Shown piece by piece: positions 1 through 25,208 of a stretch of 25,250 bases of DNA (position 1 is its first letter; every line of letters starts with the position of its first letter). The stretch spans positions 1 to 25,250 of the IMG/VR virus record IMGVR_UViG_3300005468_000057. The stretch is one strand, 5' to 3'. The DNA is from a virus. The notes beneath the pieces are model-generated. The model did not search any database. It worked only from the letters and a program-made list of their open reading frames with translations, and was not told where the DNA came from. Made by a program: the position numbers and the translations under genes.

Positions 1-434
1 GGACTTGGTACGTCGGCACAGGCTAGGGGCGTCAGCGAAAAGATCCGACTAGAGTTGTCGGCTAGGGGTGGGCGGGCTTATGTCTTGGATCGTCGTCGGT
101 TGATCGGTCTGGACTGTCGGCTAGGGATTACTCGTGGAAGATCCGGCGTGTCGGACAGGGATGGACCAGTGGTAGGCCCGACTTGGGACGTCGGTTTGGT
201 CTGGGCTGACGCGAGTTAGTCTGGATCGTCGGGGTGGAGAGTCTAGGGGAAGGCACGGAACAAGGGCGGGTGTGTCGGATCCGAGTCGAGCCGATGACGC
301 ACGGCGTAGGGTAGTCAGCGCGGGAAGGGTGGGACGCAGATAAGTCGGGTGGGGCGACAAGGTTCGGTCAAGGGCGGGATCGTCGGTTTCGGCCTCGGTC
401 TGGTGGGAAGTCGGAATGGGTCGTCAGATCCGGC
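1..434 (+). repeat. G-rich gene-free spacer 1 with GTCGG array
   Basis: I find no convincing gene here. The + strand is G-rich and carries GTCGG at 12, 57, 95, 116, 150, 190, 228, 274, 344, 382 and 410, with GTCAG variants at 313 and 423. Steps are mostly 30-46 nt. The 5' flank is usually GG plus three bases (for example GGATCGTCGG), and the 3' flank often runs into TAGGG or GGG. The array is cut by the window edge, so its full length is unknown. The same element fills two other spacers in this window. The function is unknown. The short open frames in it have the low-complexity composition expected of skewed non-coding DNA. Confidence 0.8.
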
Positions 435-540: not shown

Positions 541-789
541 ATGGCAACATACGTTTACCCCAACTGCGAAGCAGTGGTGAACTGGCAGGGCAGCCGGGTG
601 CGGATCAATCAGACGCAGGCGTGGCGCGCTGACGACCCCTTCGTAAAGGCTCGTCCGGAGCTATTCAGTCCGGACCCTGTGCGAGTCAGCTCGTCGGTTC
701 CCGAGACCGCTACCGCTCGTCCGGGTGAGACTAGGGACCTGCCGCCGCGCAAGCCGCGCGTCAGGAAGGCCGACCCCCCGCGTGACTGA
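541..789 (+). CDS. Small phage protein of the head region (hypothetical)
   Basis: Encodes 82 residues. I chose the ATG at 541 because AAAAGGGAAG ends 7 nt upstream; an in-frame ATG at 535 is too close to that site. The N-terminal half has short beta-prone stretches and the phrase WRADDPFVKARPELF, which resembles small proteins encoded next to capsid and connector genes in many actinophages. The C-terminal half is basic and low in complexity (PPRKPRVRKADPPRD), probably disordered. The end overlaps the glycosyltransferase start at 782 by 8 nt, so the two are likely translated together. The family function is not known to me; a minor head or neck role is inferred from context only. Confidence 0.7.
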   Translation: MATYVYPNCEAVVNWQGSRVRINQTQAWRADDPFVKARPELFSPDPVRVSSSVPETATARPGETRDLPPRKPRVRKADPPRD

Positions 790-1555
790 GATACTGGCTG
801 GGACAGTTCTGGCCGCGTATCTTCATCCAAATCACGTGAGCCACAGTTTCCAGGAATCGATGCACCGGCTGATCGGCTACGATCTGGCGCACAGCGCCCG
901 GGTGGTCCGAGGCGGCGGTCCGGTAATGTTCAGGTGCGGTCCTGGCAATTTGCCGGAGGGGCGTAACACGGTGGCGCGCCACTTCCTGGACGAATCCCAA
1001 GCTGAGTGGCTCTGGCTGATTGACTCGGATATGGGGTTTGAACCGGATACGGTGGACCGGCTGGTTGAGGCGGCCGGGCCAGCGGAGTATCCGGTGGTCG
1101 GCGCGCTGTGCTTCGGTCTGAAAGAGCACTCTCCTGATGGCATGGGCGGATTTCAGGTTCGAGCGTTTCCAACCCTGTATGGCTGGGCCAAGGATAAGAC
1201 GGGCACTTTTGGGTTCAGCGTGATGCGAACTTATCCGGCCAATACGCTGATGCGGGTGGCGGGCACCGGTGCGGCTTGTCTGCTGATCCACCGGTCGATC
1301 CTGGAGAAAATCCGATCGGACAGTGGTGGCGCGACTGTCTGGTTCGATCCCACCAAGCAGACCGACGGTAAACCAGTGAGCGAGGACCTGTCGTTTTGTT
1401 ACCGGGTGAACGCGACCGGGGCGCCGGTAATGGTGCACACGGGCGTGCAGACCAATCACTACAAGAACATTTGGGTGACCGAGGACCTGTACCGGCTGCT
1501 GGAGACACAGTACGGCAGCGTCGCGCAGGAGATCCAGCCGGTGGAGGCAGAGTGA
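782..1555 (+). CDS. GT-A-type glycosyltransferase
   Basis: A 257-residue protein from a GTG start that overlaps the preceding stop. The DSD motif (D81-S82-D83, in WLIDSDMGF) matches the DXD metal/nucleotide-sugar motif of GT-A (family 2-like) glycosyltransferases. The phrase CGPGNLPEGRNTVARHFLDE just before it is typical of glycosyltransferases encoded among actinophage structural genes. No signal peptide or membrane segment is visible, so it probably acts in the host cytoplasm on assembling virion proteins or a sugar intermediate. The stop overlaps the GTG of the next gene (GTGA), indicating translational coupling. The acceptor and the sugar cannot be read from sequence. An alternative is modification of host cell-wall glycans. 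Confidence 0.85.
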   Translation: MTEILAGTVLAAYLHPNHVSHSFQESMHRLIGYDLAHSARVVRGGGPVMFRCGPGNLPEGRNTVARHFLDESQAEWLWLIDSDMGFEPDTVDRLVEAAGPAEYPVVGALCFGLKEHSPDGMGGFQVRAFPTLYGWAKDKTGTFGFSVMRTYPANTLMRVAGTGAACLLIHRSILEKIRSDSGGATVWFDPTKQTDGKPVSEDLSFCYRVNATGAPVMVHTGVQTNHYKNIWVTEDLYRLLETQYGSVAQEIQPVEAE

Positions 1556-2235
1556 CCGAGCATGGCTCGCCCAAGCTGGTGGTGATCGTACCGTCCAGGG
1601 AACGCCCAGACGCTATTCGCCAGCTTGAGCTGGAGTTCGCGGCGACCTGCACTGAGCGCACCACGATGCTGCCGGTGGTGGACGACAACGACCCGACCAG
1701 AGACGCTTATCCGGACTACACCTGGCAAGCCCCTAGTCGGAACATGGTGCAGGCGCTGAATTGGGCTTCGGCTAAACTGTTGCGAGAGCGGGCACCGATC
1801 GCCGTCGGATTCATGGGCGACGACCATCGGCCGATCACCCGGGGTTGGGACAGCTTTTATCTGGAGGCGTTGGAGAAACTCGGCACAGGCATCGTGTACG
1901 GAAATGACCTGCTGCAGGGCCGAAAGCTCCCCACCCAGTGCGCGATGACGGTTGACATCGTCCAGACGATCGGCTACATGGCGCCACCGGCGTTTGGCCA
2001 CTTGTTTGTGGACAACGCGTGGCGCGCCTGGGGCGAGTTGGCCAAATGCATCTCGTACCTACCAGAAGTAATCATCGAGCACCGGCATCCGCTGGCCGGT
2101 CGGTCCGATTGGGACGATGGCTATCGCAGGGTTAACAGCGATAGCCAATACCGCGCCGATCGGCAGCGTTGGAGCGAGTACCGGCGGTTTGGTCTGGCAG
2201 AGGACGTGGCGCGCATCTCCAAGCTAAGAGACTGA
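1552..2235 (+). CDS. Second glycosyltransferase-like protein
   Basis: A 227-residue protein. The start is the GTG at 1552, which overlaps the previous stop and has GGAGGCAGA just upstream. The N-terminus KLVVIVPSRERPDAI is a typical first strand and loop of a GT-A fold, and FMGDDHRP (D90-D91) is a DXD-like sugar-nucleotide site. Later, YGNDLLQGRKLPTQCAMT and FVDNAW fit the acceptor half of such folds, as in phage proteins annotated as glycosyltransferases. It is unrelated in detail to the enzyme upstream, so the two probably add different sugars or act in sequence. The codons for AWRA at 2019-2028 contain one copy of the GTGGCGCGCC word. Confidence 0.75.
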   Translation: MTEHGSPKLVVIVPSRERPDAIRQLELEFAATCTERTTMLPVVDDNDPTRDAYPDYTWQAPSRNMVQALNWASAKLLRERAPIAVGFMGDDHRPITRGWDSFYLEALEKLGTGIVYGNDLLQGRKLPTQCAMTVDIVQTIGYMAPPAFGHLFVDNAWRAWGELAKCISYLPEVIIEHRHPLAGRSDWDDGYRRVNSDSQYRADRQRWSEYRRFGLAEDVARISKLRD

Positions 2236-2240
2236 ATCCG

Positions 2241-2792
2241 ATGAAACGACTCCGTGACACTCCAGGCGACAAGCAGCTGAGCCGAATGTACGACGTTCCG
2301 CACGACCACAGGCGGTGGCCAGACCATCTGTTGCGTGTTGGAGTAACCAGCGAGATGATCAGATGGCTGGCCGGTTCGGTGGCGTCTGCCGCCGATCTGT
2401 CCTGCGGGAATGGGACTCTGCTCAACCAGACTGATGCTGAGGTCAAATACTACGGAGACCTGGCACCGGGCTGGCCGTTGAACGGTAGCATTGAGCAGAC
2501 GTTGCAGGCTATTCCTAGGGTGGATCTGTTTATCTGCTCAGAGACGATCGAGCATTTGGACGACCCGGCCGGTGTGCTGACGCAGATCCGAAAGCGCACT
2601 AAGAAACTGGTGCTAAGCACGCCGGTGGATGCCTGGGACGATTCCAATCTGGAGCACCTGTGGGCATGGAGTCGCAACGACGTGGAACGCATGCTGAAGG
2701 CGGCCGGGTTTGAGATCGCAGCATATGTGTCCAGCGACGCCAGACCGCGCATCAAGGGATCTTATCTGTTTGGGGTGTGGGGTTGTCAATAG
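2241..2792 (+). CDS. Class I SAM-dependent methyltransferase
   Basis: A 183-residue protein starting at ATG 2241, six bases after the previous stop, with AAGAG upstream. LSCGNGTLL (C55-G56-N57-G58) corresponds to the glycine-rich SAM-binding loop. FICSETIEHLDDP (S100-H105) matches the post-motif segment common in small-molecule and sugar methyltransferases, and VLSTPVDAW followed by LEHLWAWSRNDVERMLKAAGFEI is the usual C-terminal pattern. Placement between glycosyltransferases and a sugar epimerase suggests O- or C-methylation of a sugar or glycan, as in actinobacterial deoxysugar biosynthesis. The substrate is inferred. The first motif acidic residue is replaced by Ser/Cys, so cofactor binding may be somewhat atypical. 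Confidence 0.75.
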   Translation: MKRLRDTPGDKQLSRMYDVPHDHRRWPDHLLRVGVTSEMIRWLAGSVASAADLSCGNGTLLNQTDAEVKYYGDLAPGWPLNGSIEQTLQAIPRVDLFICSETIEHLDDPAGVLTQIRKRTKKLVLSTPVDAWDDSNLEHLWAWSRNDVERMLKAAGFEIAAYVSSDARPRIKGSYLFGVWGCQ

Positions 2793-2794
2793 GG

Positions 2795-2863
2795 CTGGCC
2801 ACCGCCGCAGGGCTCAAGGCGACCCACCCCCTGGAGCACCGGCTCGACCACGGCGGTGGCCAG
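2795..2863. terminator. 13-bp inverted repeat between methyltransferase and epimerase
   Basis: The arms CTGGCCACCGCCG (2795-2807) and CGGCGGTGGCCAG (2851-2863) are perfectly complementary with a 43-nt loop, which itself holds a small GAGC/GCTC hairpin. There is no T-run after it. It lies in a 102-nt gap in an otherwise tightly packed operon, so it may attenuate or process the transcript rather than fully terminate it. Confidence 0.5.
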
Positions 2864-2894
2864 TTGCCAACAGCGTATCAGATAGGATGACGCG

Positions 2895-3803
2895 ATGTCA
2901 ATGCACGCGTTGGTCACCGGAAGCTCGGGCTTCCTGGGACGTCGTTTTGTCGAGGAGCTGAAGGCCAACGGGTACGATGTAGCCGCTTGCGACATAGCCG
3001 ATCGACCGTCCTGGGACGCGCTGGACCTGTTTCGGACCGACCAGTACAAATACGATCTGGCAATTCACTGCGCGGCGGTCAGTCCGTGGCGGCTAGCCAT
3101 CGACGGATGCCCGCTGCAGGTTGGGGCCAGCAACCTGGAGCTGGACGCGGCCTATTTTAGCTGGGCTGCTCGGGCCGAGCCGGAGCACCTCGTTTACATC
3201 AGCAGCAGCGCGGCTTATCCGGTATCGCTGCAAACCGGGCCGGGCTCGATCCCGCTGCGCGAAGACCAGATCGATCTGTCGGTCGATACGATCGGGTTGC
3301 CGGACGCTTCTTACGGCTGGACCAAGATCACCGGCGAGATGCTGGCGGGGCATTACCGGGCGGCGGGTGGCCGAGTTACGGTCGTCCGGCCATTTAGCGG
3401 CTACGGCGAATATCAGTCCAGCTATTTCCCGTTCGGAGCGTTCCGTGATCGGGCGTTGCGCCGGGTCAACCCGTTCGAGGTTTGGGGCAGCGGCCAGCAG
3501 GTGCGCGACTTCATCCACGTAGACGACGTGGTTAGGGGAACGCTGGAGGCGGTGCGACAGCAGGTGGCTGGTCCGGTAAATCTGGCCACCGGTGTCGGTA
3601 CGTCGCTTGTTGAGCTGGCCGAGATGTTCGCCAGCGAGGCCGAGTACCGGCCGGAGTTTTTGACCAAGCCCGATGCCCCGACCGGGGTGGCGCATCGCGT
3701 TGGCGACTCAGTATTGATGAGATCATTTTATCGGCCCAGGGTGAGCATTGAGCAAGGGGTGGCGCGCGCCGTCCGGACGGGGGTAATCAATGCCGTTGGG
3801 TGA
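2895..3803 (+). CDS. NAD-dependent sugar epimerase/dehydratase (extended SDR)
   Basis: A 302-residue extended short-chain dehydrogenase/reductase. TGSSGFLG at residues 8-15 is the Rossmann NAD(P)-binding motif. The catalytic triad is visible as Ser103-105 (ISSS), Tyr140 and Lys144 (YGWTK). VVRPFSGYGEYQ and DFIHVDDVVRGTLEAV are the conserved blocks of NDP-sugar epimerases and dehydratases. It probably makes a modified nucleotide sugar for the glycosyltransferases upstream. The start at 2895 has AGGATGACGCG before it. The last 14 nt overlap the connector gene, so this enzyme is co-translated with virion assembly proteins. The exact reaction (4-epimerase, 4,6-dehydratase or reductase) cannot be assigned by eye. 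Confidence 0.85.
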   Translation: MSMHALVTGSSGFLGRRFVEELKANGYDVAACDIADRPSWDALDLFRTDQYKYDLAIHCAAVSPWRLAIDGCPLQVGASNLELDAAYFSWAARAEPEHLVYISSSAAYPVSLQTGPGSIPLREDQIDLSVDTIGLPDASYGWTKITGEMLAGHYRAAGGRVTVVRPFSGYGEYQSSYFPFGAFRDRALRRVNPFEVWGSGQQVRDFIHVDDVVRGTLEAVRQQVAGPVNLATGVGTSLVELAEMFASEAEYRPEFLTKPDAPTGVAHRVGDSVLMRSFYRPRVSIEQGVARAVRTGVINAVG

Positions 3804-5324: not shown

Positions 5325-6058
5325 GCACGTTTGTTCTTACTGACGTAACCACCTGGATCGGCGGGTACGATTTTACCTGCGACTCCAGCTCGGCTAGCCT
5401 GCAGGTAAAGGTAGACGACCAGGAGACCACCACTTTTTGTACCAATGGGTGGAAATCTCGGGTCGGCGGTCTGCGTGAAGTTAGCTGCGATCTCGATGGG
5501 TTCTGGCAGGCCGGTACTGGCCAGGTGGACCCTGAGATGTTCTCCACCATCGGGAACAGTAACGAGCCAGTGACGCAATCGCCTACGGGCAGCGTGGCTG
5601 GCAGTCCCGCGTTCATGTATCTGGGCGGAAAGTTCAGTTACGAGATCTTCGGGGACCTGGGCGATATCGCCCCATTCAGCGTTTCAGTGATGAGCACCGA
5701 TGGTATCGGCGTGGTGCGCGGACAGATTGCCAAATCCAAGGGTAATGTGTCGGCTACCGGCGTGTTGGGTTCGGGTCTGACCGGTCTGTCCACCAACAGC
5801 CAGGTGGGCACTGGTCAATACCTGTACGCCACGCTGCACGTGTTCAGCGCGGGTACCACAGTAACGGTTCAGCTCCAGTCAGACGACAATGCTGGGTTCT
5901 CGTCACCGACTACGCGCGCCACGCTCGGTCCGGTTACGACCACCGGCGGGACCTGGATGACCCGGGTGGCGGGACCGATCACCGACACCTACTACCGATT
6001 CAATGTGTCCGCCATCACCGGCACATTCAGCGTCGCTGGCGCCATCGCCATCGCTTAA
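5321..6058 (+). CDS. Major tail (tube) protein, long form
   Basis: A 245-residue protein. The first half carries the tube-type core, with SLQVKVDDQETTTF and KSRVGGLREVSCDLDGF at about residues 26-67. The second half, from about residue 165 (GQYLYATLHVFSAGTTVTVQLQ through DTYYRFNVSAI), is an added beta-sandwich common in actinophage major tail proteins. It begins in an ATGA overlap, so it is coupled to the gene before. The downstream gene is a shorter paralogue sharing the KVDDQE and RxGGLxE phrases. It probably polymerises to form the tail tube; the C-terminal domain would decorate its surface and is a possible target for the upstream glycosylation genes. Confidence 0.8.
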   Translation: MSTFVLTDVTTWIGGYDFTCDSSSASLQVKVDDQETTTFCTNGWKSRVGGLREVSCDLDGFWQAGTGQVDPEMFSTIGNSNEPVTQSPTGSVAGSPAFMYLGGKFSYEIFGDLGDIAPFSVSVMSTDGIGVVRGQIAKSKGNVSATGVLGSGLTGLSTNSQVGTGQYLYATLHVFSAGTTVTVQLQSDDNAGFSSPTTRATLGPVTTTGGTWMTRVAGPITDTYYRFNVSAITGTFSVAGAIAIA

Positions 6059-7025: not shown

Positions 7026-7860
7026 ATGGGCAGGGGAGCTTGGGTTCGTCGGAAAGAGGGTCGAATCGGGGTGACCCGTATCGGGGTGATTGGGGTTGTC
7101 GGGTAGACTCGGGCTCGGGGCGACTACAGGCTGGGTTGGGTCGTCGGGTGTGCGCAGGACTGAGGTCGGCCGGGTCGGATTTTGGATCGTCGGGAATGGC
7201 TGTGGATAGGCGCGTAATGACTCGTCGACTGAGCGGGGGGTAGGGCTGGACGGCAGGGTGGCGCGCTCACGGGGCGATTGGGATTGTCGGGCTTGTAGGG
7301 GGATCGGTGCGAGTGAGGGTAGTCGCTGAGGGAGAGGAGCGAACCGAGCGCGATGCGGGACTGGTCTGCGATAGGTGTGTCCCGTCGTCGTTGGGGAGGG
7401 ATTGGGCGAGCTGGGTTGGGTCGTCGGGACGAGAGTGGCGAGGGCAGAGTTAGATTGGTCCGGTTTGTCGGCTTGGATCGGGTTAGCTAAACCGGTCAGA
7501 CATGGTTCGTCGGACATGTCGATGATGGGGTGAATCGGTCCAGGGTCACGAGGGCATGTCGGAGGGGATTGGGCTTGCCGGTTGGTACGGGTGGTCGGAT
7601 TGGGCCCGCGTAAGCTAGTGGCACGGTATGTCGGATGGATGGGGGGGTCCGTGGATGACACGGATTGTCGGATAGGGCAGGGCACGGTAGCGATCTTGTA
7701 GCCGGGGGGACATGTCGGTATGGGTTTGTCGCGGTCCGTGAGTGGCACGGTCTGTCGGGTAGGGGACGACCCGTGGCCGGAAGGGCATGTCGGGGAGTAG
7801 GGGCGGCTGTCACGGTCTGACGTGGAACGGTTTGTCAGAGAGCGCGCGCTAGGGGCAGGT
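7026..7860 (+). repeat. G-rich gene-free spacer 2 with GTCGG array
   Basis: About 830 nt with no convincing gene. GTCGG occurs on the + strand at 7048, 7098, 7143, 7165, 7174, 7189, 7286, 7423, 7467, 7509, 7558, 7594, 7630, 7667, 7714, 7754 and 7789, with GTCGT, GTCGA, GTCGC or GTCAG in several of the remaining steps. From 7387 to 7834 the steps are 36, 44, 42, 49, 36, 36, 37, 47, 40, 35 and 45 nt. In the right half the units also share CACGG plus three bases before GTCGG, and two have small hairpins there. The long proline/serine/threonine-rich frame on the minus strand is a by-product of the G-rich strand. The spacer sits inside the tail operon. Confidence 0.85.
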
Positions 7861-7872
7861 GGCCAGCCTAGC
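7848..7872. terminator. Weak hairpin closing spacer 2
   Basis: GCTAGG (7848-7853) and CCTAGC (7867-7872) form a 6-bp stem with a 13-nt loop at the very end of the GTCGG array. No T-run follows. It may separate transcription through the spacer from the downstream start region, but the stem is short. Confidence 0.3.
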
Positions 7873-7878
7873 ACCTAC

Positions 7879-7903
7879 TGTGTCTCGGTGTCAATATAGA
7901 TAG
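7879..7903 (+). promoter_or_regulatory. Leader element shared with 12835-12858
   Basis: TGTGTC, GGTGTCAAT and ATAGATAG occur in order between the spacer and the chaperone gene. Nearly the same string (TATGTC, GGTGTCAAT, TAGAGAG) lies ahead of the gene at 12873. Both lie in leaders that follow non-coding DNA. TATAGA could act as a -10, but no clear -35 is present. A promoter or a conserved leader RNA element is possible. Confidence 0.4.
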
Positions 7904-12215: not shown

Positions 12216-12725
12216 ATGACTGTCGATGTCCTGCGCTGGTCCTGTCTAACCAGTGTGGCCAAATATCGGGACGGCTGGAATCGTCCCTATGACGTTCTGA
12301 CCATCCCCGGGAACCTGTTGATGTATGGCGGGGCGTCGTTGATTTGGCAATGCCTGATCGGCAACGGCACCAGCACAGCAGGGCAGGCGCTGACCTACGC
12401 CAATGCGTCCAATGCCTATCTTGGGGTGGGCGATAGCGCTACCGCAGCGGCAGCCAGCCAATCCGACTTGCAAGCGGCCACCAACAAGCTACGTCGAGGC
12501 ATGAACGCTACCTTCCCAGCGCACACCGATGGGTTGGCCAGTGGTAACGCGTCGATCCAGTTCCAGGCCACCTACGGGTCGGCCGACGCCAACTTCGCCT
12601 GGGCGGAGTGGGGTCTGTTCACCGCCAGCAGTGGTGGCCGGATGCTTAACCGCAAGGTGGAGGCCTTGGGGACCAAGAGTGCGGGCAACGTCTGGGTACT
12701 GACCGTTACGCTTAGTTTGGCATAA
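12216..12725 (+). CDS. Minor tail protein of conserved actinophage type
   Basis: A 169-residue protein starting one base after the tape measure stop, within TAGATG. YLGVGDSATAAAASQSDL, ATNKLRRGMNATFP, FAWAEWGLFTASSGGRML and NRKVEALGTKSAGNVWVLTVTLSL are phrases found again and again in small tail-tip or fibre proteins of actinophages and other siphophages. It is beta-rich with no membrane segment or catalytic motif, and probably forms part of the distal tail or fibre base. The stop is followed by an unusual 147-nt non-coding gap with palindromes. Confidence 0.7.
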   Translation: MTVDVLRWSCLTSVAKYRDGWNRPYDVLTIPGNLLMYGGASLIWQCLIGNGTSTAGQALTYANASNAYLGVGDSATAAAASQSDLQAATNKLRRGMNATFPAHTDGLASGNASIQFQATYGSADANFAWAEWGLFTASSGGRMLNRKVEALGTKSAGNVWVLTVTLSLA

Positions 12726-12731
12726 CAGAAG

Positions 12732-12781
12732 CGGTGGCGCGCCACCCTCTTCCGCCGTGGTCAACAGACGGCGCGCCACCG
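12732..12781. terminator. Paired GGTGGCGCGCC palindromes forming a hairpin
   Basis: CGGTGGCGCGCC (12732-12743) and GGCGCGCCACCG (12770-12781) are exact inverted copies, a 12-bp stem with a 26-nt loop. The left copy is itself a perfect 14-bp palindrome, GGTGGCGCGCCACC (12733-12746). It directly follows the gene ending at 12725. No T-run follows. It may be a terminator, a processing site or a protein-binding site. A third copy lies at 12861-12870. Confidence 0.6.
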
Positions 12782-12872
12782 ATTCCGGCTCAACGGAACA
12801 AACCCTGCCGCTACGGGCCTAGTCTATCGGGACGTATGTCCTGGTGTCAATTAGAGAGGAGGCGCGCCACCT
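12782..12872 (+). promoter_or_regulatory. Leader of the 12873 gene with shared GGTGTCAAT element
   Basis: The leader contains TATGTC then GGTGTCAAT and TAGAGAG (12835-12858), the element also seen at 7879-7903. The ribosome site AGAGGAGG (about 12855-12862) runs directly into GGCGCGCCAC (12861-12870), with GTG at 12873. A new transcript may start here, since the gap follows a strong hairpin. No clear -35/-10 pair can be defined. Confidence 0.4.
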
Positions 12873-13400
12873 GTGGCCACCGCCACCATCTTGCTGCCGA
12901 TCACGGCGGCCATTACCGGCGACGGGACCAGCGGCAACGAAGGTCCGGCGCTCATGCGGGTCAAATCGTCGGCCTCTGCCCCGTCACCGCATTTCCTTCA
13001 GGCCTCGTTCGACGCCAGCACGATTGAGCGCATTATGTGGTCTTTCCGCATGCCAGCTGATTATAATAACACACCGGTGCTTAAGGTTCAGTTCAAGATG
13101 ACCTCGGCCACCACCGGCAACGTGGTCATCGGCGGGCGGGTGGCAGCCTATACCGCCGGTGTGGACTCGACCGACGCCGATGCCAAGGCGTTTGCCGCCG
13201 TGAATACTGCGACGGTAGCTGTCCCGGCCACCACAGCCGGAAAGATTGGCGAGGGTAGCATCTCGCTGACCACCAACGATTCAGTTGCGGCGAACGACTG
13301 GGTAGTCATTTACTTGTCCAGGGAGGCGAGCAACGGATCCGACACCGCCACCGGCGATTGTGAGGTTGTTGCAGTGTCGCTGGAGTACCAGACCAACTAA
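12873..13400 (+). CDS. Tail-associated beta-sandwich protein
   Basis: A 175-residue protein from a GTG start; GGAGG lies about 10 nt upstream. PSPHFLQASFDASTIERIMWSFRMPADYNNTPVLKVQFKM, SATTGNVVIGGRVAAYT, ANDWVVIYLSREASNGSDTATGDCEVVAVSLEY are recurrent phrases of an actinophage structural family, strongly beta-stranded. It probably forms part of the tail tip or a fibre head. The ribosome site and start flank a copy of the GGCGCGCCAC word, unusual for initiation regions in this window. The exact role is not known. Confidence 0.7.
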   Translation: MATATILLPITAAITGDGTSGNEGPALMRVKSSASAPSPHFLQASFDASTIERIMWSFRMPADYNNTPVLKVQFKMTSATTGNVVIGGRVAAYTAGVDSTDADAKAFAAVNTATVAVPATTAGKIGEGSISLTTNDSVAANDWVVIYLSREASNGSDTATGDCEVVAVSLEYQTN

Positions 13401-21714: not shown

Positions 21715-23574
21715 CTAGTGACGGGTAAAGTCTTGCCGGTATCCTTTGGCGTCCAGATACTCGCGCAGATCAGCTCCCTTACGACCAGCCAGGCAGGGCT
21801 CGGTGTAATCGCACAGATAGCGGCAGGTCTGCGGGTCGGTGTGCCGAGGGCTGTCCACGCCCGCGCGCGACAACTCACGCTGCTGCTGATATCTGGCCTT
21901 GGCGGTCAGATAGGCTTCGACGGCGATCGTGTCCAGCTCGATGTCGGTGCGGTACATGGGTGTTCGCTGAAACCGCTCTTTTAGCGGTTGAACGATGCCG
22001 GGGTAGTAATCCTGGTCGGTGTTGCCGTCCCAGACCTTAGCCTCACCGACCAGCCGTTGCGAGCGTGCGGCGTCGTAGATCTGGCCGAACACCGTCTTAC
22101 CCATCTTGCGCAGACCCCAGGTGTACAGCCCGAATTGGTCGTCCAGGTCCAGCTCTTTGCCCTTGGGCAGATTGCTGACGAACTTGTGGTCGACCACCCA
22201 CAGCTGTTTGGCACCGGACTGCGTTAGTTTACCGACGATTAGGTCGATCTTCATCTTCAGTTTGAAACCGGATGGCCTGCCGGTTGGTGTCGGCAGCCTG
22301 CAGACCGCTTGGTGCTCCACCGCGACGACGCGCCACTCTTCGTCCAGACCATAGCAATTGTGGGTCAACAGTCCATCGGCAAAGTAGGTATGATCGTCGG
22401 CCACCTCCAGTGAATAAACCGGGCCGTCATAAGCCACGCGACGGACCTTCACCGGTTGCCACGCCTCTGACGTGTGCGGAGCGCGTATCTCGCCCCGGGG
22501 ACCGGGGACTATGTCGCCCAACGACAACAATCGCATCCCATCCATCAGATTGCACGCCCTGATTGGCTTGGGCACGATCATCCAGCGTTCAGCAGCACCG
22601 CCCAGTTCCCATAGCGGGTATTTGATGTCTCTGCCGTACGCGTTCAGGCAGGCAACAGCCCGATGGACGTTGGGTCCCACCGCAGCCCAGAACTGGTCCG
22701 AAGGGAATGCGCCAGACCGAAACAGCTGGGTAGGGATGCCATATCGGTGTGCCGCAGTCATTTCTGCCAGCCACGCCGATTCCTTGGTGTCGTGGCCGTT
22801 TAGGACCCATACAGCGTCGGCCTTTTCCGTGCGTGCGCGGTGGACTGGGCCGAACAGGTGTCCCTTACTACCTGTTCGCCACTTAGCATGCCCTATCCGG
22901 AACTGATCTCCTTTCCGCATGAGATACACGGCCCAACGGGCGGGCTCTTCACCGATGATCGCCACGGCGATATGGTCTGCGGTGTACCGACTGCTATGCG
23001 ACGCTGTTGCCGCCTCTATCAGGTTGCCTCGATAATGCCTAGTACCTACGCGAGTGACTGGTTTTCCGGATTTGGACACCCAACCCACACCTCGCTCATG
23101 CTTGGCCCAGCTAACTACGCGGTCGCCGGGCTTTACATCCTGTATGGGCACCTGTGTCCAAATAGCCGGTTGCCTACCTCCTCCCTGCCAGGTGGCCACA
23201 GTAACCATAGTGTTAGGAGGTTGGCAGGCCAGATGACCCGCATAGGCCCAGCGGATCAGGTCGGCCAGCTCTGGGCTGCGCGGCGCGATAACATCCTCGA
23301 TCAACGCGCTTACCCGCTGGCGGCAGGCCTGGAGCGTCTCCTGCAACGACCCAGGGGAAGTCCACGGATATTGGGCCGTTTGGGCGGCGTCCTGGTGCTT
23401 CTTGATGGTGTTATAGTGCTCCTCCAGCACGGCATGCCAGGCTGTGCCTTTGGATGTGGGCGCCAGCGCGTCGTGTTCTTTGGTCCACCGCTCGACATAG
23501 CTGAGTTGGTGTTTGAGCGGACAATGACGGGCGGTTTGCAGTTCACTAAACGACACGATCCTGGCTTCGGTCAC
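21715..23574 (-). CDS. Cas4/RecB-type Fe-S exonuclease, intein-containing
   Basis: A 619-residue precursor from GTG 23574 (AAGGGAGGAC upstream). The spliced protein would be about 329 residues. Extein motifs of the PD-(D/E)XK nuclease are Asp444 (KIDLIV), Asp462-x-Lys464 (VVDHKF) and Gln480xxxTyr484 (QFGLY). A 4Fe-4S cluster is indicated by Cys18 (ARHCPLKHQLSY) with Cys584, Cys588 and Cys594 near the end. His47 in KGTAWHAVLEEHY fits the N-terminal RecB motif. It probably acts in phage DNA recombination or processing. The intein occupies residues 117-406. The gene runs leftward next to the third G-rich spacer. Confidence 0.88.
   Translation of the reverse strand: MTEARIVSFSELQTARHCPLKHQLSYVERWTKEHDALAPTSKGTAWHAVLEEHYNTIKKHQDAAQTAQYPWTSPGSLQETLQACRQRVSALIEDVIAPRSPELADLIRWAYAGHLACQPPNTMVTVATWQGGGRQPAIWTQVPIQDVKPGDRVVSWAKHERGVGWVSKSGKPVTRVGTRHYRGNLIEAATASHSSRYTADHIAVAIIGEEPARWAVYLMRKGDQFRIGHAKWRTGSKGHLFGPVHRARTEKADAVWVLNGHDTKESAWLAEMTAAHRYGIPTQLFRSGAFPSDQFWAAVGPNVHRAVACLNAYGRDIKYPLWELGGAAERWMIVPKPIRACNLMDGMRLLSLGDIVPGPRGEIRAPHTSEAWQPVKVRRVAYDGPVYSLEVADDHTYFADGLLTHNCYGLDEEWRVVAVEHQAVCRLPTPTGRPSGFKLKMKIDLIVGKLTQSGAKQLWVVDHKFVSNLPKGKELDLDDQFGLYTWGLRKMGKTVFGQIYDAARSQRLVGEAKVWDGNTDQDYYPGIVQPLKERFQRTPMYRTDIELDTIAVEAYLTAKARYQQQRELSRAGVDSPRHTDPQTCRYLCDYTEPCLAGRKGADLREYLDAKGYRQDFTRH
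22357..23226 (-). mobile_element. Intein with GIY-YIG-like endonuclease region
   Basis: Residues 117-406 of the exonuclease precursor (290 residues). Cys117 starts a HINT block (CQPPNTMVTVA), TADH at about 198-201 is the block-B type sequence, and DDHTYFADGLLTHN ends the intein at Asn406 before Cys407. Between them, WAVYLMRKGDQFRIG resembles a degenerate GIY-YIG start, and ADAVWVLNGHDTKESAWLAEMTAAHRYGIPTQLF resembles the catalytic helix and acidic residue (Glu271) of that family, as in known phage inteins. Removal joins HLA to CYGLDEEW and restores an uninterrupted nuclease. Confidence 0.85.
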
Positions 23575-23634
23575 TAGCGTCCTCCCTTACGCGCGAACGC
23601 GTGATTATGGACTGATTCTATCGGGGGGGCCCTA

Positions 23635-24436
23635 GTCGGTGTGGCGAGGCAAGGTTTGCAGTCGACCAGTCGGTATGGAGACGGGGGGATCAGGCCTTGG
23701 GTCTAGACGGGTAGTCGAAGGGAGCGATTTGGGAAGGAGTTAGCGGGATAGTCGGATGAGGGTGGCTTTTTTATCGGATCGATCGGCTGTGTTCTGTCAG
23801 TAGGGATGCCGGTGCGGGGAATCGGTATGTCGGTTGATCGGGCTGGCGGGGGATCGGGCAAGGGTAGTCAGGAGAGGGTGGATGGCTGGGGGCAAGGGTA
23901 GTCGGCTGAGGATGGTACGACCGGGGCGAGGGTAGTCGGAGATGGGTCGACGAGGTACAGTAGCGATCTGATTTGTCGAGGTGGGAGGTAGCGATAGGCA
24001 GGGGCGGAAACGAAGTGGTGAGTCGGGTGGGTGGGGCGTATTGAGTCGGTTTGTCGGTGACGGGCCGCAGTTGGTGTGCGGGGGGTTGTCGGGCAGCGAG
24101 TGCGTAGGCGTCGGATCGCGGGGATACGTCAGTATGAGTGCGGATAGGATAGAAACGGTCTGTCGGACGTGGGGTAGCATCGGACGCGGTGAGTCGGGTT
24201 AGATCGGGAATGGGCTAGGGCCGGGTTGATTGGATGATGACAAGTCGGAAAAGGCGAAGGGAAGGCGAATCAGTGAGCTGGGTGGGGATGTCGGAACGGG
24301 GCAGCGACGGTAGTTTGGCTTGAACGGGACATGGCACGTCAGTCGCGAGGAGGGCCGGTGAGTCCCAGGGTAGGTTCGTCGGAATTGGGTGCGAAAGGGG
24401 CAGGTTCGTCGCTGGGGAGATTAGTCGGAGCGATCC
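23635..24436 (+). repeat. G-rich gene-free spacer 3 with GTCGG array
   Basis: About 800 nt without a convincing gene, between two leftward genes. On the + strand GTCGG occurs at 23635, 23669, 23751, 23829, 23901, 23935, 24022, 24045, 24053, 24088, 24110, 24162, 24193, 24244, 24290, 24378 and 24424, with GTCAG, GTCGA or GTCGC at 23714, 23796, 23877, 23975, 24128, 24338 and 24408. Most steps are 30-51 nt. A local variant, GGGTAGTCGG or near it, recurs at 23711, 23873, 23896 and 23931. The direction is the same as in spacers 1 and 2 although flanking genes point the other way. A T-run at 23767-23772 is the only obvious other feature. Between 23575 and 23634 lies the leader of the exonuclease gene. 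Confidence 0.85.
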
Positions 24437-24468
24437 GGGGGGGCAGATGGCGCGCCACCTGCTCCCCC
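24437..24468. terminator. Hairpin after the RAMP-like gene
   Basis: A nearly perfect palindrome centred on TGGCGCGCCA (24448-24457), with GGGGG-CAG on the left paired to CTG-CCCCC on the right (one A-C mismatch and one G-T pair). It lies 12 nt past the stop of the leftward gene at 24480, as expected for a terminator. No T-run follows. It reuses the GTGGCGCGCC word. Confidence 0.6.
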
Positions 24469-24479
24469 GCACCGGACGG

Positions 24480-25208
24480 TCACGCAGTGGGAACCAGTTC
24501 CCAAGAGGTGATCGAGTACCGGCCGTATCCCTGCGATCGACTGGCGCCCAGCCCCTGCTCCTGGCCGGTCAGCCAGATCATGCCCCACTGCTCCCGGGTG
24601 AAATCGTGGTCGGTCTTGACTCGGAACTTGACGCTGGCCAGTTCCACGTACTCTTCGTACTGGATGCCCGATCCCCGGAAGGTGTGGACGAACCGCTGGG
24701 TGATGCCAGTGGGGTCGGTGACCGGTGCTCCGCTGTTGGGGTCTCGCAGCGGCAGCACGTCCTCAACGACCATGACGTGCTCGGCCAGGTAGGACAACAG
24801 ACCCTTGTTGGTCTTGCCCCAGCCGCGCGCGCCGAGCTTGCCAGCCGCGACGGCCACGCTGGCAGCTTCCTTCAGAGCAGCCTTGAGCTGACGACCCTCG
24901 ATGTACAGAGCCTTGGCGGCCTCCGGGTCGTCTTCCGGCATCCGCTTGAAGCCGTTCAGGTGCTTGAGCTGGTCGACGATCTTGGTGGCCTCGTCGACCG
25001 TGACGCCACGCTCGGTCATGGTGGTGGCGATCATTTCCTGGATGACCTGGTCGGTGGTGCTGACCTTGGACCGTAGCCAGCCCTCGGCCACGCGCGGGTC
25101 GGAGGGGACGCCACCGGCGATGTTTCGTACCTGCAGCTCGCCCTCGAAGGTCCAGGGCCAAGCCTTCTTCTGGAGATCGGCGAACACCGAGTTGGGGTAG
25201 ACGGACAT
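24480..25208 (-). CDS. Conserved actinophage protein with RAMP (Cas7/Csm3)-like motifs
   Basis: A 242-residue protein from ATG 25208, with AAAGGAACC upstream. It belongs to a family I recognise from many actinophages near Cas4-type exonucleases, with no settled function. The N-terminus WTFEGELQVRNIAGGVPS resembles the first strand of RAMP proteins. YIEGRQLKAALKEAA (102-116) is close to the IPGSSLKGxLR-type motif of Csm3/Cmr4-like proteins, and GLGASRSQGYGRY (219-231) is like their glycine-rich loop. No catalytic residues are evident. It may bind single-stranded nucleic acid with the exonuclease. The RAMP link is my inference from motifs. Confidence 0.7.
   Translation of the reverse strand: MSVYPNSVFADLQKKAWPWTFEGELQVRNIAGGVPSDPRVAEGWLRSKVSTTDQVIQEMIATTMTERGVTVDEATKIVDQLKHLNGFKRMPEDDPEAAKALYIEGRQLKAALKEAASVAVAAGKLGARGWGKTNKGLLSYLAEHVMVVEDVLPLRDPNSGAPVTDPTGITQRFVHTFRGSGIQYEEYVELASVKFRVKTDHDFTREQWGMIWLTGQEQGLGASRSQGYGRYSITSWELVPTA

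What the first reader, a model, noticed from the sequence alone, without database searches (positions are those of the whole stretch)
7026..7860. Quasi-periodic array of degenerate GTCGG elements in spacer 2
In 830 nt with no gene, GTCGG occurs 17 times on one strand; a hand estimate at an assumed 60% G+C gives one to two by chance. From 7387 to 7834 the element (or one-base variant) recurs at steps of 36, 44, 42, 49, 36, 36, 37, 47, 40, 35 and 45 nt. The sequence between is not conserved, so this is neither a simple tandem repeat nor CRISPR. It looks like an ordered array of short binding or structural sites, about 40 nt apart, kept inside the tail operon. I know of no described phage element matching this.
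Basis: seen in the sequence. Interest (0 to 1): 0.85.

Follow-up and report, generated by a model that had tools for sequence, protein, structure and literature searches.

The report
Phage guide-RNA arrays with gapped code
The odd gene-free stretch is an array of short guide RNAs that a phage uses, with a CRISPR-related protein encoded next to a sister array, to recognise genes of rival phages by reading two letters and skipping one; this VIPR mechanism was first reported in a 2026 preprint, and this looks like an undescribed variant of it.

Summary
The spacer is built of GG doublets every 5 nt (GG-N-NN pentamers), punctuated by GTC; successive GTCGG sites lie 3+5k nt apart, k mostly 6-7. The window holds three such arrays (2-430, 7028-7841, 23624-24446; z = 8.8-10.2 against dinucleotide shuffles). 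The third abuts a 242-aa gene (24480-25208, minus) whose family is the only one shared by nearly all array-bearing contigs (20 of 23) and folds like a Cas7/Csm3 RAMP. Of 79 loci fetched by that protein alone, 72 carry an array; 129 control loci gave one marginal call. This is the anatomy of VIPR (PMC13142463, 2026): a phage RAMP plus gapped-code guide RNAs. The published 1-nt-skip rule decodes these arrays: units match, in frame with the skip on the codon wobble base, terminase, capsid and rival vipr genes. Differences from characterised VIPR: GTC-delimited units without per-unit tail, no GGY pyrimidine, and promoters plus gene orientation indicating a C-rich RNA, complementary to target mRNAs. 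No target was found for the window's own guides. Strand is inferred, not shown; the preprint's supplement could not be read.

The parts
2..430 (-). Guide array S1 (cut by the contig edge); GG-every-5 pattern reads on the + strand, inferred transcript is the minus (C-rich) strand; 16 GTC punctuations, 75 pentamers
   Evidence: HMM score 130.5; z 8.8 against shuffles; the same array at the same place in relatives L002 and L003
439..468 (-). Promoter TTGACT-18-TAGCAT pointing into array S1
7028..7841 (-). Guide array S2 (the finding); 27 GTC punctuations, 143 pentamers
   Evidence: HMM score 251.1; z 9.4
7865..7894 (-). Promoter TTGACA-18-TAGGCT pointing into array S2; it can serve only a leftward, C-rich transcript of the array
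   Evidence: conserved in G001 and G002 at the array homologous to S1
23624..24446 (-). Guide array S3, 27 GTC punctuations, 145 pentamers, 34 nt downstream of the vipr-like gene on its strand
   Evidence: HMM score 245.5; z 10.2
24480..25208 (-). vipr-like gene, 242 aa, RAMP (Cas7/Csm3-like) with C-terminal glycine loop GLGASRSQGYGRY
   Evidence: family in 20 of 23 array contigs; PADLOC Csm4 E 1e-5 for family members; AlphaFold pLDDT 80.6; Foldseek to type VII Cas7 E 5e-7 and Csm3 E 4e-6
21715..23574 (-). 619-aa PD-(D/E)XK nuclease gene directly downstream of array S3; possible accessory (vap) or ordinary phage recombination gene
   Evidence: PF12705 E 4.5e-17; phrog_1218 exonuclease E 1e-45

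Best explanation
The spacer is a multi-guide array of a VIPR-type system. It is transcribed and cut or used in units of about 33-38 nt, each delimited by GTC (GAC on the other strand) and made of 6-8 pentamers. Two fixed bases per pentamer (GG on the + strand) anchor subunits of the phage-encoded RAMP protein, and the last two bases of each pentamer (NN) are exposed for pairing. Successive NNs pair with a target in which one base is skipped, so a unit reads NNxNNxNN. The skip falls on codon wobble positions, so one guide covers synonymous variants of a conserved protein motif. Targets are essential genes of rival phages, including rival vipr genes; the expected effect is repression of those genes. 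Shown here: array architecture, link to the RAMP gene, and the 1-nt-skip match to in-frame coding targets for guides of other arrays. Inferred: transcription of the C-rich strand, processing at GTC/GAC, repression, and targets of the window's own guides.
For: Pentamer and GTC architecture over 29 arrays and 521 sites; 59 arrays on 23 contigs, window included. RAMP family shared by otherwise unrelated array contigs. 72 of 79 protein-selected loci have an array, 1 marginal call in 129 control loci of 2.0 Mb. RAMP fold. Skip-rule test, 130 arrays against 5.6 Mb: with NN = pentamer positions 4-5 and a 1-nt skip, 48 exact 8-pentamer hits against 17 for reversed guides, other skips 20-29; at 9 pentamers 6 against 0. 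The excess is confined to sense coding with the skip at codon position 3: 8-pentamer units with up to 1 mismatch, 12 distinct guides against 4; 9-12 pentamers, 3 against 0. Exact targets: major head protein, terminase Walker A motif, vipr genes of other phages. Mechanism and skip rule published for VIPR (PMC13142463).
Against: No target was found for any guide of the window itself; its arrays have many 6-nt slips, which makes decoding uncertain. Only five guide families have exact targets, found in a small sequence set, and the 8-pentamer exact matches alone do not clearly exceed a control in number of guides (2 against 1). The third base of the pentamer is not the pyrimidine of GGY. The GG strand is antisense to the RAMP gene in nearly all loci, whereas in SUSP1 the two run the same way. 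Profile similarity to the SUSP1 Vipr is confined to the glycine loop (E 0.018). Transcription was not measured.
Confidence: 0.9

Rival explanations
1. The array is a guide array as above, but the G-rich strand is the RNA, as in SUSP1; the promoters at the other end are antisense or regulatory.
For: GG-N-NN on the + strand has the same layout as the published GGY-NN, and the NN register found by the target test fits it. Homologous proteins would be expected to hold the same bases.
Against: Consensus promoters point into arrays only from the C-strand start: 9 of 95 at score 14 or more, against 0 of 95 at the other end. C-rich strand co-oriented with vipr in nearly all loci, often 15-20 nt from its start codon. 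Leader hairpins sit between TATACT boxes and array starts in G013 and G015, and terminator-like hairpins at the far ends. In Mae-JY09 the C-rich array follows vipr on its strand and ends at a hairpin.
Confidence: 0.22
2. The array is an RNA or ssDNA scaffold or decoy for a RAMP filament, with neutral variable bases and no target pairing.
For: Strict 5-nt spacing suffices for a filament-binding protein; most guides have no target in the sequences at hand.
Against: The 1-nt-skip excess, confined to sense coding with the skip at the wobble base, is not expected. Hits lie in conserved motifs of phage essential genes and of vipr itself.
Confidence: 0.06
3. Skewed, C-rich minus-strand transcript acting as a Rho-dependent terminator region or other composition effect.
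For: Strong GC skew of about 0.45.
Against: Composition does not give 5-nt phase locking: z 8.8-10.2 against shuffles scored with the segment's own composition. No reason for the RAMP link.
Confidence: 0.01

Closest known systems
VIPR (Viral Interference Programmable Repeat), Escherichia phage SUSP1, type II (PMC13142463)
   Same: Phage-encoded single RAMP with glycine loop; intergenic RNA-coding tracts of 5-nt repeats with two fixed G and a hypervariable NN; 1-nt-skip decoding with the skip at wobble positions; targets in competing phages and in other VIPR systems
   Different: Here GTC delimits units of 6-8 pentamers, up to about 60 per array and up to 10 arrays per contig; no conserved tail after each unit; third pentamer base not Y; GG strand antisense to vipr and to the array promoters; guides complementary to target mRNA; no adjacent vap identified with certainty
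CRISPR-Cas type III (Csm3/Csm4) and type VII Cas7
   Same: RAMP fold, glycine loop, inferred multi-subunit binding along a guide RNA
   Different: No conserved repeats, no contiguous spacers, no Cas10; period 5, not 6
TRAP-binding RNAs ((G/U)AG repeats every 5 nt)
   Same: Trinucleotide repeats spaced so that one protein subunit reads every 5 nt (from general knowledge)
   Different: No TRAP homologue; RAMP protein; hypervariable positions carry information

Membership tests
VIPR | Phage-encoded RAMP homologue with glycine loop | tested here: met
   sequence relation to SUSP1 Vipr only at the glycine loop
VIPR | Intergenic tandem pentamers with two fixed bases and a hypervariable NN | tested here: met
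   (positions 4 and 5 at 1.98-1.99 bits entropy)
VIPR | Third conserved base is a pyrimidine (GGY), or a related consensus | tested here: not met
   On the G strand the third base is about G 0.38, C 0.27, A 0.17, T 0.17. The paper allows a related consensus, which could not be compared because the supplement is not readable here
VIPR | 1-nt-skip decoding of targets | tested here: met
   for guides of other arrays, not of the window
VIPR | Targets in competing phages or VIPR systems | tested here: met
   terminase, major head protein and vipr of other phages
VIPR | vrRNA of 9-16 repeats with an invariable structured 3' tail | tested here: not met
   Units mostly of 4-9 pentamers, no tail per unit; one leader hairpin per array in G013 and G015. 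This describes the characterised type; the paper mentions other array architectures
VIPR | Guide RNA binds Vipr and represses double-stranded DNA targets | not testable with these tools
   needs experiments
VIPR | Accessory vap gene | tested here: inconclusive
   PD-(D/E)XK nuclease downstream of S3; not shown to be conserved at other arrays
CRISPR array | Conserved repeats separated by contiguous spacers, cas1 or cas effector operon | tested here: not met
   no conserved repeats; no other Cas protein recognised among the window proteins scanned
Known RNA family (Rfam 15) | Covariance model match | tested here: not met
   no match in the window

The most novel reading that the evidence does not exclude
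A VIPR branch of actinobacterial phages whose guide RNA is the C-rich strand (NN-n-CC scaffold after a GAC handle), so that guides are complementary to the mRNA of the target, with dozens of guides per array; it may act on RNA, or on the coding DNA strand only, unlike the characterised GGY-type VIPR that binds either DNA strand.
Probability: 0.35. Interest if true: 0.85.

Novelty: new variant of a known kind. Interest (0 to 1): 0.75.

Why it matters
VIPR is proposed as the ancestor of CRISPR and was reported only in 2026. These arrays were found here from sequence alone, without knowledge of that work, and the published decoding rule reproduces on an independent data set. They add large multi-guide arrays in phages of actinobacteria, a natural source of many guide-target pairs, and evidence for a complementary scaffold and strand choice. 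They also explain a class of long 'empty' G-skewed spacers in actinophage genomes. The guide that reads the terminase Walker A motif matches exactly in 44 of 79 fetched terminase loci despite synonymous changes, a direct illustration of why skipping the wobble base is useful.

Tried and rejected
Simple tandem repeat and known RNA family. Decayed gene: neighbours intact in relatives, array at the same place. DNA-polarity signals of Chi or KOPS type: arrays occur on both strands of one contig, such as G013. Composition or Rho-site effect: phase locking survives a composition-matched background. Other pairing codes: NNN triplets with target period 3-7 gave no excess; positions 3-4 as NN gave none. 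A first skip test with 59 arrays was negative; the signal appeared with 130 arrays and a larger target set. Dinucleotide composition of NN against codon positions was compatible but not discriminating. Promoter scores averaged over all arrays do not differ between ends (p 0.34); only the strong ones do. BLAST of the arrays against GenBank phages found nothing. False positives of the pattern scan (collagen-like coding repeats, simple repeats) were set aside by eye.

Full report
OBSERVATION. The window is an IMG/VR viral contig of 25,250 bases with tail genes of an actinophage type. Spacer 2 (7026-7862) has 17 GTCGG on + and none on -, against 6.4 expected from shuffles. Two further gene-free stretches, at the left contig edge and at about 23.6-24.45 kb, have the same skew and motif.

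HIDDEN 5-NT PERIOD. Aligning GTCGG sites shows G at -5/-4, -10/-9, -15/-14 and so on, and at +3/+4, +8/+9, +13/+14. A pattern scan of viral contigs found the same arrays in many other contigs. Pooled over 29 arrays, spacings between GTCGG sites are 3 mod 5. The unit is GTC + (GG-N-NN)k, most often k = 6 or 7. A 10-state model finds 59 arrays on 23 contigs, including three in the window. The window arrays are 8.8, 9.4 and 10.2 SD above shuffles with a composition-matched background. Window arrays are less strict than most: about one pentamer in six has an extra base.

PARTNER PROTEIN. All-against-all comparison of genes on the array contigs gives one family far ahead of the rest: 17 contigs by BLAST, next best 8, and 20 of 23 by profile, the three others being fragments. 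In the window it is 24480-25208 on the minus strand, 34 nt from array S3. It has no Pfam family, weak Csm4-type matches in PADLOC and a predicted fold like Cas7/Csm3. Fetching loci by this protein alone gave 6 actinobacterial genomes and 73 viral loci. 72 of the 79 carry an array, nearly all with the C-rich strand running with the gene. Control loci (129, 2.0 Mb) gave one marginal call. One GenBank phage, Microcystis phage Mae-JY09 (PP395641.1), has the gene followed by an unannotated array.

MATCH WITH VIPR. PMC13142463 describes phage RAMP proteins with guide RNAs of YNNGG repeats and a 1-nt-skip target rule. I had inferred a RAMP bound to an array with gapped guide information before finding it. 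The SUSP1 locus was read for comparison: GG-Y-NN tracts run with its vipr gene.

TEST OF THE DECODING RULE. With 130 arrays and 5.6 Mb of phage sequence with arrays masked, NN at pentamer positions 4-5 and target period 3 gave 48 exact 8-pentamer hits against 17 for reversed guides. Periods 2, 4 and 5 gave 20-29 against 17-32. At 9 pentamers it was 6 against 0. The exact 9-pentamer hits all end at or next to a GTC. By coding class, the excess lies only where the skipped base is the third codon position of the sense strand: for 8-pentamer units with up to one mismatch 12 distinct guides against 4, for 9-12 pentamers 3 against 0; the antisense class shows none. The exact targets are a major head protein motif (NGGYLVPF) in four loci, the terminase Walker A motif (VRGPHGLGK), the vipr motif (N/K)VAEGWLK in other phages, one unidentified 655-aa protein, and one alanine-rich frame that may be spurious. 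In 79 newly fetched terminase loci the terminase guide matches exactly in 44, across synonymous variants. That set was chosen because of the hit, so it illustrates the logic and is not an independent test. No target was found for the window's guides.

WHICH STRAND. Consensus promoters point into S1 and S2 and into the homologous arrays of G001 and G002 from the C-strand start. Over 95 arrays, 9 reach score 14 at that end and none at the other, although the means do not differ. Several arrays of G013 and G015 start with a TATACT-like box and a leader hairpin with variants that keep pairing by eye; hairpins follow the far end of several arrays. With the gene orientation this favours a C-rich RNA, GAC-NN-n-CC-NN-n-CC..., complementary to the target mRNA. 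The layout of GG-N-NN argues the other way. I put about three to one on the C-rich strand.

LIMITS. Gene calls on fetched contigs are crude. Controls share composition but not all codon structure. The preprint's supplement, which shows other consensus types and 'staggered arrays', could not be read, so part of what is called different here may be described there.

Noticed in passing
L364 (PP395641.1, Microcystis phage Mae-JY09, record about 37713-38976): A vipr-like gene annotated as hypothetical, followed by an unannotated C-rich array and a terminator-like hairpin; the only GenBank phage record with a relative of this protein. The recorded cyanobacterial host is unexpected, as all six bacterial genomes with the family are actinobacteria.
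   Followed up: partly
G013 (IMGVR_UViG_3300037258_000549), ten arrays, and G015: Arrays on both strands, several preceded on the C strand by TATACT-like boxes and a leader hairpin (GCCAC-ACCAG-GGTGGC and variants that keep pairing).
   Followed up: partly
L374 array 5422-5975, second unit: A guide that reads the KVAEGWLK motif of vipr genes in other phages: VIPR aimed at VIPR.
   Followed up: yes
window 21715-23574 (-): PD-(D/E)XK nuclease gene directly after array S3; its relation to the system is unclear.
   Followed up: partly
G010 12428-12943 (+), G009 30113-30664 (-) and relatives: An uncharacterised protein of about 180 aa (171-236) on six array contigs, next to the array in at least two; no Pfam or PHROG match; candidate accessory gene.
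   Followed up: partly
window 725-3803: Sugar-nucleotide epimerase and glycosyltransferase-like genes inside the structural gene region, shared with several other array contigs.
   Followed up: no
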